In this document: piece after piece, positions 33,446-36,498 of the stretch
How the letters are laid out: each line of letters opens with the position of its first letter
Position numbering within the stretch: position 1 is the stretch's first letter
Made by a program: the position numbers and the translations under genes
The notes under the pieces: generated by a model
Told to the model about the DNA's origin: nothing
Databases searched by the model: none
What the model saw: only the letters and a program-made list of their open reading frames with translations
Assembly: GCA_000517565.1 (NCBI GenBank)
Contig: CP007051.1
Location: 186,001 to 250,000, forward strand
Source of the DNA: Desulfurella acetivorans A63
Lineage (GTDB): Bacteria; Campylobacterota_A; Desulfurellia; Desulfurellales; Desulfurellaceae
DNA length: 64,000 bases
Direction: 5' to 3'

Positions 33446-34089
33446 TTATTTTTTATATTTTACAATACTAAACAAACTGAACAAAGAAGGAGCTATTATT
33501 AGAGATGCAAAAGCACCAAAAATCAAACCACCAATAGTAGCAGTAGTAAGGGGTTTCAATAAATCAGTACCTTTGCCAATACCTATGGCTAAAGGCAAAA
33601 AACCAACAATATCAGCGCTCATTGTCATAATAATTGGTCTTAATCTGCTACGAACAGCAAGGGCTACACTTTTGTGCGTGTGAGTTTTGCTTAATTGTTT
33701 TGATCTTGTAAATATGAGTATTATATTGTTTACTACAATAGCAAATACAAGCAGTATGCCTAAAAAGCTGTACTATCAAGATTTAGTCGCGCTATTAAAA
33801 GTGACAATAAAGAAAAACTCGCAGTAGAGCTAATAACTATTATTGCAACTATAGCACATTTTTGGCTTGAAAATTGAAAACCAAAAAGTATTAGCAAAAT
33901 AAAAAGCGCTATCGTTAGTATTAGATACATATTTTGAAAACTTTTTGTTTGTTGTTTGTAATAGCCACCAATAGAATAGCTAATGTCATGTGGAAGATTC
34001 ATATGCTTAACTATATTATCAATATCATTTGCAGCCTTTGTCAAACCTATGTGAGAATATGGTTTGACCCACACCCACGATTTTATTAA
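33446..34089 (-). pseudogene. RND efflux permease remnant: frameshifted and 5'-truncated
   Basis: Two overlapping frames encode the C-terminal membrane part of an RND permease. The upstream frame (34089 down to a stop at 33760) has SHIGLTKAANDIDNIV and LLIARLNLDSTAF. The next frame continues with LGILLVFAIVVNNIILIFT, RLRPIIMTMSADIVGFLP and ends at 33446. Adding one T to the T5 run at 33762-33766 would restore a single frame, so one base has been lost. More than 800 N-terminal residues are missing: the sequence meets the IS607 element near 34090 and the rest is not found on its other side. It is unrelated in detail to the intact pump at 1.8-4.8 kb. Confidence 0.85.
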
Positions 34090-34091
34090 CT

Positions 34092-34145
34092 CCGTTAAAC
34101 GTTGTTAGCATTTTTAATAAATTCTGTGTTACCACCACCTAACGG
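34092..34145 (-). ncRNA. Candidate omega-RNA 3' end (TnpB guide scaffold)
   Basis: TnpB proteins use an RNA made from the 3' part of tnpB and the element end, followed by a guide from flanking DNA. On the minus strand CCGTTA (34145-34140) can pair with TAACGG (34097-34092), closing a loop over the tnpB stop, immediately before the predicted element end. The guide would then be read from the RND remnant. This is a position-based proposal and no RNA was modelled. Confidence 0.3.
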
Positions 34146-35729
34146 ATCAGGCACAAACGGGGTGATGCAACACTGCCTGATGCCTTCATAATACCGATTG
34201 AGTATGTTTTTAATTGTCCATTTGTTGAGTTTCTTAGGCGTTAATCTGCCGTAATCATCGGTATTATGAAGATTTGTTTTCAGAACATCTGAAACAAATC
34301 TTAAAAGAATATTTTTACTTGCGTTTAAGTCTGCGTTAGCTTTGTGTCCGCAATTTTCACACTCAAAATCTTCCTGGGTTTTTCTATTTGATCTTGATAT
34401 ATGTCCGCATACCGGGCAGGTTTGAGAAGTATAGTGGCTTGGAGTAATATGAACCCTGATGCCTCTTTTTTCTGCCTGGGTAATAAGTTTGTTTTTAACA
34501 TTAGATAAGTGCAGGAGTTTGGAAAGTCTTGAGTATTTTATGTCAAATTCTTCATTGATGCCGAATTTACCGGATAACAAAAGGTCTTCTATTACAAGGT
34601 CTGTAATGCTGTTTTTTTCAAGATAGTTTAAGAGACTATATATGAGATAAGATACATACCAGTCAAGCTGTCTGTATATTTTTTTAAGTTTTTTAAGCTG
34701 TTTAGCTGTTAGATTCTGATAACCTATTTGATCTAACTCTTTAAGGTTTGACACAATACGTTTCATATAGTTTCGGTCGTAATCTACTATGTAACCATCA
34801 GAAAGAGTGGCAAAGTTGTTTTTAAGATTCAAGTCCATACCTATGGATTTACTGTAAGGTTTGAATTCAGGTTTCTTTGCTTCATAGACAGTTGCTATGT
34901 TTATCTTATTGCCTTTAGCAGACGGATAAATGACAAATTCTTTTGCTTTAGGCTTTCTGGTTTCGTTGTGGTAATCACCGTTTATCTGCAGCGGCAATCT
35001 AAATTCTCTGCCGTTTTTCATTCTAAATACAAACCAGTATTTATACAGAGTATTTTCATTATCGTAATCAATGCGGGCTTTATTTACAGTGTGGTCTAGG
35101 AGTAAAGAAGATGTTTCTGTAAACTTTATGAGCTTTAATTTGTTTAAAATTCTTGTTTGTATGTTTTTTGCAAGGTTTACAATGCGGGCAAAATAAGGCT
35201 TGGTTTTGTAATACTCATATAAAGCTGTAATACCTTCATTTTTAAGCTGTGGCAGTATGTCTTTGTCTAACTCAAGGTAAACAAGGTATTTGACAAACTT
35301 TGTAAGTTTTGTTGATTTGAATTTTATTTCAAAACGCTTTGTATCGCCTTTTTTAGCATATTTTGTGTCTTTTTTGTAGCGTTCTATAATCATTTCACTT
35401 TGCAATCTGACTTTGAAGTTCTGCAGGCGCTTGTTTAAAGCGTTTTTATACTTATCTACAAGCATTTGGTGTTCTTTCTGGATGTTCCATGAAAGTATAA
35501 GCGGGTCTTTCGTTGGATTTTCAGCTGTTTCATCATTGTAAAGATTAACACTGCTGTAAAGTGCGTTAAGCTTTTTAATGCCGTCTGAAACTAAGAGGAG
35601 ATGCCTATTAGCGTAAATACACTCAGAAAGATTGTTTTTAATCTCTGTTGTTCGTTTCAGCACAGCAAAAACGTCTTCGCCTTTAGTTTTATTGTAATAT
35701 TTAGAAGTAAACAAAACAGATTTAATCAT
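34095..35729 (-). CDS. tnpB: TnpB RNA-guided nuclease of the IS607 element
   Basis: A 544-residue TnpB, longer than the usual 350-450. All three RuvC acidic residues are visible: Asp in SIGMDLNLKNNF (near 297), Glu in LVIEDLLLSG (near 379) and Asp in ADLNASKNI (near 461). The zinc ribbon between them reads CPVC...CENCG. The extra length lies mainly in the first 280 residues, a helix-rich, Lys-rich region that would bind the guide RNA and recognise the target motif. TnpB nucleases cut the donor site to favour element retention and are the ancestors of Cas12. It ends at the element edge. Confidence 0.92.
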   Translation of the reverse strand: MIKSVLFTSKYYNKTKGEDVFAVLKRTTEIKNNLSECIYANRHLLLVSDGIKKLNALYSSVNLYNDETAENPTKDPLILSWNIQKEHQMLVDKYKNALNKRLQNFKVRLQSEMIIERYKKDTKYAKKGDTKRFEIKFKSTKLTKFVKYLVYLELDKDILPQLKNEGITALYEYYKTKPYFARIVNLAKNIQTRILNKLKLIKFTETSSLLLDHTVNKARIDYDNENTLYKYWFVFRMKNGREFRLPLQINGDYHNETRKPKAKEFVIYPSAKGNKINIATVYEAKKPEFKPYSKSIGMDLNLKNNFATLSDGYIVDYDRNYMKRIVSNLKELDQIGYQNLTAKQLKKLKKIYRQLDWYVSYLIYSLLNYLEKNSITDLVIEDLLLSGKFGINEEFDIKYSRLSKLLHLSNVKNKLITQAEKRGIRVHITPSHYTSQTCPVCGHISRSNRKTQEDFECENCGHKANADLNASKNILLRFVSDVLKTNLHNTDDYGRLTPKKLNKWTIKNILNRYYEGIRQCCITPFVPDPLGGGNTEFIKNANNV

Positions 35730-36324
35730 TACTGATGTCTTCCTTAATAAGCTGATCTATGAGCGTTTTTTTTCTTTTGCTGTAGAGTTTCATAGAGTAG
35801 CAATGAAGCAGGCTTACTATTTCTTCAAATATCTCTTCGCTGTCCAGTTTTTTAGAACCAATTTCGTTTACAACAACTATTTGCGTATTGTATTTTTTAA
35901 ACAGATAATCAAATAAATCAAAACCAACCCTTGAAAGCCTGTCTTTGTATGAAATAATTACTCTTTCTATTTTTCCTGCTATGACTAAATCAAGCATATT
36001 AAAAAACTCTTTTCTGTCTTTAAAACTTATACCGGATGCAATGTCGGAAAATACTGCATTAATAGTCCAGCCGTTTGAGTAACAGAATGTTTTGAGCATT
36101 TCTATTTGGTTTTCCAAATCCTGTTTTTGTTTCCTTGTTGACACTCTTGCATATATCACAGTCTGGCGGTTTATGCCTTTGTTAAATATCTTATATACAT
36201 CTTCATCGTTATAATCATAATGTCCGCTTGGAAGAACAGTTACTCTTATTGTTCCGTTTTTGACATATTTAGTAAGTGTTTGGCGTGTAATACGCAACAG
36301 GTTTAAAACTTCTTTTGTCTTCAT
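35722..36324 (-). CDS. tnpA: IS607-family serine recombinase TnpA
   Basis: A 200-residue transposase: an N-terminal MerR-like helix-turn-helix (about 1-50, TRQTLTKYVKNGTIRV), then a serine resolvase domain with IYARVSTRKQKQDLENQ near 57, where the Ser attacks DNA, and YKDRLSRVGFDLF near 130. The DNA-binding domain ahead of the catalytic domain is diagnostic of IS607. The start ATG lies 6 bases from a TATAAT and lacks a ribosome site. Confidence 0.93.
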   Translation of the reverse strand: MKTKEVLNLLRITRQTLTKYVKNGTIRVTVLPSGHYDYNDEDVYKIFNKGINRQTVIYARVSTRKQKQDLENQIEMLKTFCYSNGWTINAVFSDIASGISFKDRKEFFNMLDLVIAGKIERVIISYKDRLSRVGFDLFDYLFKKYNTQIVVVNEIGSKKLDSEEIFEEIVSLLHCYSMKLYSKRKKTLIDQLIKEDISND

Positions 36325-36330
36325 AATAGC

Positions 36331-36357
36331 ATTATATTCCTAAATCAAAAAAGTCAA
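36331..36357 (-). promoter_or_regulatory. tnpA promoter, apparently leaderless
   Basis: On the minus strand TTGACT (36357-36352) and TATAAT (36336-36331) are 15 bases apart, slightly short. The ATG at 36324 is only 6 bases beyond the -10 box. Confidence 0.4.
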
Positions 36358-36498
36358 GGTTTTTAATCAAAAAAAAGAATATAATAGAATAAAGTTAATG
36401 AAAGAGGGAATGATATACAAGAAAAATTAGATGTAGTTAACAAAAAACTCGATATAGTCCTGGAAGAAGTATATGCTCAAAAAACCCATAGAAAATCG

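What the first reader, a model, noticed from the sequence alone, without database searches (positions are those of the whole stretch)
34095..35729. Unusually long, catalytically complete TnpB in an IS607 element
Seen: 544 residues with Asp/Glu/Asp RuvC residues and a zinc ribbon; the extra length is in the N-terminal recognition part. Known: TnpB proteins are RNA-guided nucleases and Cas12 ancestors, usually 350-450 residues. Inference: possibly a variant with an enlarged guide- or target-binding region, from a probable thermophile.
Basis: partly seen in the sequence, partly recalled or inferred. Interest (0 to 1): 0.55.

Follow-up and report, generated by a model that had tools for sequence, protein, structure and literature searches.

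The report
Long IS607 TnpB shared with phages
A bacterial jumping gene carries an unusually long version of the RNA-guided DNA cutter TnpB; its extra front part is conserved in a small family whose other known members sit mostly on large phage contigs, where the likely guide RNA can be recognised, and its predicted shape resembles a phage CRISPR enzyme.

Summary
In detail: 34095-35729(-) encodes an intact 544-residue TnpB with D299/E381/D467 and a four-cysteine zinc ribbon, overlapping an IS607 tnpA by 8 nt, in an element at about 34071-36409. The enlarged N-terminal part is conserved in a supported clade: a second IS607 element (51% identity over residues 1-522) and 15 non-redundant phage-contig copies (536-551 aa). 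In phages it is under purifying selection (dN/dS about 0.10). The phage copies end sharply inside a three-way-junction RNA with strong covariation that overlaps the tnpB 3' end: a convincing omegaRNA, with flank-derived guides. Five copies are 1.86-kb TnpB-only elements; two contigs carry two copies each. For the window element the omegaRNA is only inferred. The predicted N-terminal region matches phage Cas12 CasLambda best in Foldseek (E 5e-5) but ties with Cas12f in VIA-align, without sequence support or a CRISPR array. Best reading: an RNA-guided TnpB nuclease that retains or spreads its element, in a new subfamily with an enlarged REC lobe. Other long IS607-type TnpBs (483-555 aa, e.g. Thermus) exist, but residues 1-180 do not align with theirs. 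RNA-guided cutting was not tested.

The parts
34071..36409 (-). IS607-type insertion element (about 2.34 kb). Ends approximate by a few bases; host flanks are rearranged relative to two sister species.
   Evidence: Host homology to sister genomes G001/G002 ends at 34065/34071 and restarts at 36410 in both (script coordinates converted to window coordinates); the partial second copy L002 is alignable from 34071.
34095..35729 (-). tnpB, 544 aa, intact
35722..36324 (-). tnpA, IS607-family serine recombinase, 200 aa, overlaps tnpB by 8 nt
   Evidence: NF033518 186 bits, cut-off 110; coordinates
35130..35729 (-). TnpB residues 1-200: first WED strand plus enlarged helical REC region, the clade-specific part
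   Evidence: AF2 models; conserved columns; hhalign to the other long group starts only at residue 180
35337..35378 (-). conserved basic motif, residues 118-131 (YKKDTKYAKKGDTK), in a low-confidence stretch of the model; possibly a nucleic-acid-binding loop (inference)
   Evidence: Y118, K119, K123, G128 and K131 invariant in 17 rows; sequences; pLDDT below 50 over 111-136
34842..35129 (-). TnpB residues 201-296: WED beta strands
   Evidence: secondary structure of the models
34329..34835 (-). RuvC core with catalytic D299 (34833-34835), E381 (34587-34589), D467 (34329-34331)
34350..34418 (-). zinc ribbon, C438, C441, C457, C460
34072..34220 (-). putative scaffold part of the omegaRNA (the stretch that was folded), overlapping the tnpB 3' end and the right end; inferred by position and by analogy with the phage branch
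   Evidence: MFE -30.4 kcal/mol, can form a three-way junction, but z-score 0.00; the phage RNA model does not match here
34051..34070 (-). host flank next to the right end, the inferred 20-nt guide source
   Evidence: position directly after the shared right end; inference
33446..34074 (-). remnants of an AcrB-type RND transporter gene at the right flank (two ACR_tran fragments; the last few bases belong to the element)
   Evidence: Pfam PF00873 in both ORFs

Best explanation
The gene is an active-site-complete, RNA-guided TnpB nuclease of an IS607 element, belonging to a distinct long subfamily. It is inferred to bind an omegaRNA made from the 3' end of its own gene, with the DNA that happens to flank the right end as guide. 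It would then cut copies of the insertion site that lack the element, so that the element is kept or copied by repair. The enlarged N-terminal REC lobe is a conserved working part, most likely gripping the guide-target duplex or the scaffold RNA. Shown here: gene, domains, clade, conservation of the N-terminus, selection on it in the phage branch, and a covarying RNA at the 3' end in the phage branch. Inferred: RNA binding, guide use, cleavage, and the same RNA logic in the window element.
For: Catalytic and zinc residues intact and invariant in the 18-row alignment. tnpA adjacent in the window and in L148. One group with SH-aLRT 99 holds the window, L148 and the 10 phage rows given to the tree. 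dN/dS median of 11 phage pairs: 0.10 for residues 1-200, 0.05 for RuvC/zinc. Phage branch: 15 of 15 non-redundant loci end in TTC[TA]TCGGA followed by unlike flanks. On the last 150 nt of these 15, a 41-pair structure has 96.1% of cells paired against 89.6% in shuffles, 48 double-change cells against 15.6, 0 of 500 shuffles as high for both, and slid structures are 41-52% paired. The RNA model finds 14 places in 12 of 15 records; by coordinates each lies at the 3' end of a tnpB copy, one of them a remnant (L163).
Against: No cleavage, RNA or target-motif data. The window omegaRNA is not supported by folding energy (z 0.00; fragment L002 z -1.23), and the phage RNA model does not credibly hit the window, L002 or L148. 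No empty site was found. The dN/dS and RNA evidence comes from phage relatives at 26-28% identity, not from the window protein. The only other copy found in the genome is a 360-bp fragment, so recent activity here is not shown.
Confidence: 0.8

Rival explanations
1. The protein is a transposon-side relative of the phage CRISPR effector CasLambda: this IS607 and phage TnpB lineage shares an ancestor with CasLambda and shows the enlarged REC lobe before CRISPR capture.
For: N-terminal model: CasLambda2 is the only Foldseek PDB hit under 1e-3 (5.1e-5; next AsCas12f1 4.6e-3). VIA on that model aligns 215-258 residues to the five CasLambda rows (Z 10.9-12.0), against 151-178 to the listed Cas12f rows. 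Whole model: the four CasLambda rows lead with Z 17.7-18.1, next Cas12f 15.6. The relatives lie mostly on large phage contigs, and a review describes CasLambda as found in phages (PMC11641405, passages).
Against: No CasLambda sequence hit with two profiles and two single proteins at E up to 10 or with the window protein at E up to 1. VIA on the N-terminal model puts SpCas12f1 first (Z 12.5, 176 residues, 3.3 A), tied with CasLambda (12.0, 244 residues, 5.3 A); and CasX rows also align 219-229 residues (Z 8.8-10.8), so wide coverage is not special to CasLambda. Foldseek on the whole model ranks Cas12f first. Whole-model rmsd to CasLambda is 16-18 A, pTM 0.48. No ordinary TnpB was modelled as a control.
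Confidence: 0.18
2. Ordinary TnpB with a lineage-specific, functionally minor N-terminal expansion.
For: Length varies among IS607-linked TnpBs: L034 483, L035 528, L036 519, L037 555 aa, and short ones of 376-377 aa with a detected TnpA (L086, L108) on the same large branch of the tree. Residues 1-180 have no detected match in the other long group.
Against: N-terminal invariants shared from the window to phages and dN/dS about 0.10 over residues 1-200.
Confidence: 0.15
3. The window element is a decayed relic: the nuclease is intact for now and the guide RNA is no longer functional.
For: Flanks rearranged relative to sisters; the only other copy found is a fragment; RNA folding not better than shuffled.
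Against: Both genes are full-length and open, with all catalytic residues kept.
Confidence: 0.15

Closest known systems
IS607-family TnpB (e.g. ISFba1 TnpB with RAGATH-18 reRNA, PMC11061315)
   Same: IS607 tnpA partner, RuvC D/E/D, zinc ribbon, inferred 3'-end guide RNA
   Different: 544 aa instead of the 330-433 aa that paper gives; no Rfam family reached its gathering score in the window; enlarged REC region; D-L-N instead of D-hydrophobic-G at the first catalytic Asp (motif from PMC10711439)
ISDra2 TnpB (IS200/IS605)
   Same: fold of the N-terminal region, VIA Z 10.6-10.9, and catalytic logic
   Different: transposase partner type and a much shorter N-terminal region (both recalled)
CasLambda, a phage type V CRISPR effector
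   Same: best Foldseek match of the N-terminal model and top VIA rows for the whole model; phage setting
   Different: CasLambda is a 747-aa CRISPR effector (PMC11641405, passages); here no CRISPR-like array in the loci scanned and no sequence similarity detected
Cas12f
   Same: closest solved proteins by sequence, mainly in the zinc ribbon and RuvC end; first in Foldseek with the whole model
   Different: sequence similarity confined to the C-terminal half; no CRISPR-like array here
Other long IS607-type TnpBs on plasmids (Thermus, Bifidobacterium, Indioceanicola, Salipiger, Mycobacterium)
   Same: 483-555 aa; an annotated IS607 transposase directly upstream in L034 and L035
   Different: 18-22% identity to the window protein; profile alignment only over residues 180-488; a separate group in the tree. 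L036 and L037 have other transposase names upstream and L032 has none annotated

Membership tests
TnpB (OMEGA nuclease) | RuvC D/E/D triad | tested here: met
   D299, E381, D467
TnpB (OMEGA nuclease) | zinc ribbon / TNB domain | tested here: met
   PF07282 68.8 bits, cut-off 26.3
TnpB (OMEGA nuclease) | curated guided_TnpB score | tested here: met
   NF040570 106.5 bits, cut-off 100. Of five relatives tested, L155 (109.8) passes; L148, L159, L157, L151 (83.5-95.7) do not
TnpB (OMEGA nuclease) | omegaRNA at the gene's 3' end reaching the element's right end, window element | tested here: inconclusive
   three-way-junction fold but z 0.00; no credible model hit
TnpB (OMEGA nuclease) | the same, phage branch of the clade | tested here: met
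   15 of 15 loci; covariation above shuffles. L039, a frameshifted copy outside the 15, has no such end
TnpB (OMEGA nuclease) | RNA-guided DNA cleavage | not testable with these tools
   needs bench work
IS607 element | adjacent IS607-type serine recombinase | tested here: met
   NF033518 186 bits, cut-off 110
RAGATH-18-linked IS607 TnpB | RAGATH-18 RNA beside tnpB | tested here: inconclusive
   no Rfam family reached its gathering score in the window; whether Rfam 15 holds RAGATH-18 was not checked
Fanzor-like TnpB | DPG motif and alternative glutamate six residues before the zinc finger (PMC10711439, passages) | tested here: not met
   D-L-N at 299-301; E381 is 57 residues before C438
CasLambda | N-terminal lobe fold | tested here: inconclusive
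   Foldseek best hit, VIA tied with Cas12f
CasLambda | detectable sequence similarity | tested here: not met
   profiles A8 and A12 and two single proteins at E up to 10, window protein at E up to 1
CasLambda | adjacent CRISPR array | tested here: not met
   simple exact-repeat scan of the window and loci L148-L184: none; only the few kb of flank fetched were scanned
TldR-type nuclease-dead TnpB | lost catalytic residues (definition recalled) | tested here: not met
   triad complete

The most novel reading that the evidence does not exclude
This lineage is the transposon-side sister of CasLambda: an IS607 TnpB that enlarged its REC lobe, moved into large phages as TnpB-only elements, and represents a transposon-side stage from which a phage CRISPR effector could have arisen.
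Probability: 0.18. Interest if true: 0.85.

Novelty: new variant of a known kind. Interest (0 to 1): 0.6.

Why it matters
If right, it adds a TnpB subfamily with a conserved enlarged recognition lobe, a usable guide-RNA model, and small TnpB-only mobile elements in large phages. That makes it testable whether a bigger REC lobe changes guide length or specificity without CRISPR, and whether phage Cas12 effectors such as CasLambda came from phage-borne transposon nucleases.

Tried and rejected
Chance or annotation artefact: rejected, since a relative 51% identical over residues 1-522 carries the same gene pair.

Window omegaRNA from energy alone: no support. Phage RNA model on the window, L002 and L148: no credible match (best window score 11 bits, E 5.5).

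Empty sites: right flanks of L159, L180, L151 and L167 searched in 12, 11, 6 and 6 records gave no empty site (the first two found their own site, the last two had no positive control). Joined-flank patterns of L180, L175 and L169 in viral contigs: 0 matches each. Reading frames by hand across the L180 and L175 junctions gave inconsistent boundaries, so no target rule is claimed. For the window, the two flanks lie on different contigs in both sister genomes, so no empty site could be shown.

More relatives: two genome-contig scans found none, with narrow peptide patterns. The N-terminal profile in 386 genomes hit only the own genome. A mixed profile (A2) had matches in 34 of 386 genomes; I did not sort these by N-terminus; one of them (G287) aligned over profile positions 85-508 in a 482-codon frame, so other long TnpBs are there. 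Plasmids: 2082 records match the whole protein, 2 of them over at least 80%, the same M. intracellulare protein at 21%; N-terminus alone: none at E up to 10. GenBank phages: 266 records match the window protein and 214 match L159, none over 80% of the query. BFVD with the N-terminal model: nothing under 1e-3, best 1.2e-3 to an unnamed 756-residue entry.

Dropped rows: L184 (557-aa frame overlapping tnpA, protein looks ordinary), L005 (a different, broken TnpB), L039/L149 (frameshifted; only its long frame was used in A8 and the tree, and no right end was found).

Literature: seven searches. No listed title or abstract start that I saw describes this subfamily; this covers open PMC papers only, and five were opened (passages of PMC11061315, PMC10711439, PMC12607003, PMC11641405; abstract and outline of PMC11870625). 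PMC12607003 reports two phage TnpBs of 401 and 433 aa.

Full report
Observation. The ORF at 34095-35729(-) is open for 544 codons, has the RuvC triad D299/E381/D467 and zinc-ribbon cysteines 438, 441, 457, 460, and passes the curated guided_TnpB cut-off (106.5 against 100). It overlaps by 8 nt an IS607 transposase gene at 35722-36324 (186 bits, cut-off 110). Host homology to two sister genomes stops at 34065 and 34071 and resumes at 36410 in both, and the second copy in the genome is alignable from 34071, so the element is about 34071-36409, 2.34 kb. The flanks lie on different contigs in the sisters, so the site is rearranged; remnants of an AcrB-type gene lie on the right. The only other copy found in the genome is a 360-bp right-end fragment at 94% identity.

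Relatives. In 386 genomes the N-terminal profile hit only the own genome; searches with the whole protein in 99 genomes and with a mixed profile in 386 found other TnpBs. Scans of IMG/VR found L148, a complete IS607 gene pair (TnpB 51% over residues 1-522; TnpA 57%), and copies on phage contigs of up to 363 kb, 26-28% identical to the window protein where full length; a remnant lies on a 387-kb contig. I kept 15 non-redundant phage loci for the RNA work; the protein alignment A8 holds these 15, L148, the long frame of L039 and the window (18 rows). In a tree of 46 proteins the window, L148 and the 10 phage rows given form one group (SH-aLRT 99), inside a larger group of 23 rows that also holds the other tree rows with a detected IS607-type TnpA (L034, L035, L044, L086, L091, L108; quick search, no bootstrap). 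Plasmids of Thermus, Bifidobacterium, Indioceanicola, Salipiger and Mycobacterium carry other long TnpBs of this kind (483-555 aa), but profile alignment with them covers only residues 180-488. Being long is therefore not unique; this N-terminal 1-180 is what sets the clade apart.

Conservation of the N-terminus. Twenty-six positions of residues 1-301 are invariant in 17 rows, including Y118, K119, K123, G128, K131. In 11 phage pairs the median dN/dS is 0.10 for residues 1-200, 0.05 for 201-300 and 0.05 for RuvC/zinc (a few pairs undefined in the last two); the 3' tail gives 0.23, where silent sites may be held by the RNA.

RNA. All 15 phage loci end in TTC[TA]TCGGA and then diverge at once. 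Folded one by one, the last 150 nt give nearly the same shape: a long stem, then a three-way junction whose closing stem contains the element's last bases. RNAalifold finds 41 pairs, 14 with double changes; shuffle controls are exceeded (96.1% paired against 89.6%; 48 double-change cells against 15.6; 0 of 500). The structure was derived from these sequences, which favours it over slid versions, and related sequences favour covariation, as the tool warns. A covariance model of the junction finds 14 places in 12 of 15 records, each at the 3' end of a tnpB copy or, for L163, of a remnant; in eight records only part of the first-look candidates was scored, so orphan copies are not excluded. The window's own 3' end can form a similar junction but no better than shuffled sequence, and the model does not match it.

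Mobility. Five phage copies have both ends defined and are 1855-1865 bp, with no room for tnpA. Two contigs carry two copies each. tnpA-like genes lie upstream of 3 of the 15 copies, one as a fragment. At record level 7 of 17 records have an IS607 transposase match, 5 over the cut-off, one of these being L148's own. In G386, whose near-copy G387 holds two TnpB-only elements and the same-scoring transposase, that transposase is 51% identical to the window's but is paired with a different 406-codon TnpB. Movement in trans is thus possible there; homing by TnpB is an alternative. A preprint shows TnpB acting as a gene drive for insertion sequences in plasmids (PMC11870625, abstract and outline).

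Structure. AF2 models: full length pLDDT 75, pTM 0.48; residues 1-301 pLDDT 72, pTM 0.65. Both show a WED strand, REC helices to about residue 197 and WED strands to 282. The N-terminal model's only Foldseek PDB hit under 1e-3 is CasLambda2 (5.1e-5). VIA gives SpCas12f1 Z 12.5 (176 residues, 3.3 A) and five CasLambda rows Z 10.9-12.0 (215-258 residues, 5.1-6.1 A), a tie at the top; CasX rows reach 219-229 residues at lower Z. For the whole model the four CasLambda rows lead with Z 17.7-18.1 against 15.6, at rmsd 16-18, whereas Foldseek ranks Cas12f first. The sequence searches do not list CasLambda. I therefore treat the CasLambda link as a hypothesis.

Verdict.

Noticed in passing
window 33446-34074 (-): Two fragments of an AcrB-type RND transporter lie at the element's right flank; in two sister genomes the two flanks of the element are on different contigs, so the insertion sits at a rearrangement.
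   Followed up: partly
L002 1474-1833 (own genome, C1 around 1218706-1219044): 360-bp right-end fragment of the same element, 94% identical, next to an integrase-like gene and near a tRNA-like sequence at the locus end (both by eye, not searched).
   Followed up: partly
L230 1489-3298: A transposase 51% identical to the window TnpA is paired with a clearly different 406-codon TnpB in a phage contig: the two genes seem to swap partners.
   Followed up: partly
L159 5117-5196: The flank right of this insertion (the inferred guide) is the start of a short element found at four other places in the same contig at 74-80% identity.
   Followed up: no
L163 3908-4267: A tnpB remnant (116-codon frame) in a 387-kb phage contig still carries the full guide-RNA structure at its end (102.9 bits).
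   Followed up: partly
L169 and L173, right flanks: Two insertions lie beside what look by eye like phage tRNA genes; not checked with a tRNA finder.
   Followed up: no
L151 and L156, upstream of tnpB: A short similar reading frame (ending in ...DVDNLED) lies directly before tnpB in both copies, by eye; possibly an accessory gene of the element.
   Followed up: no
L039/L149 and L040/L150: The same frameshifted copy of the long TnpB appears, identical over 1901 bases, in contigs from two samples.
   Followed up: partly
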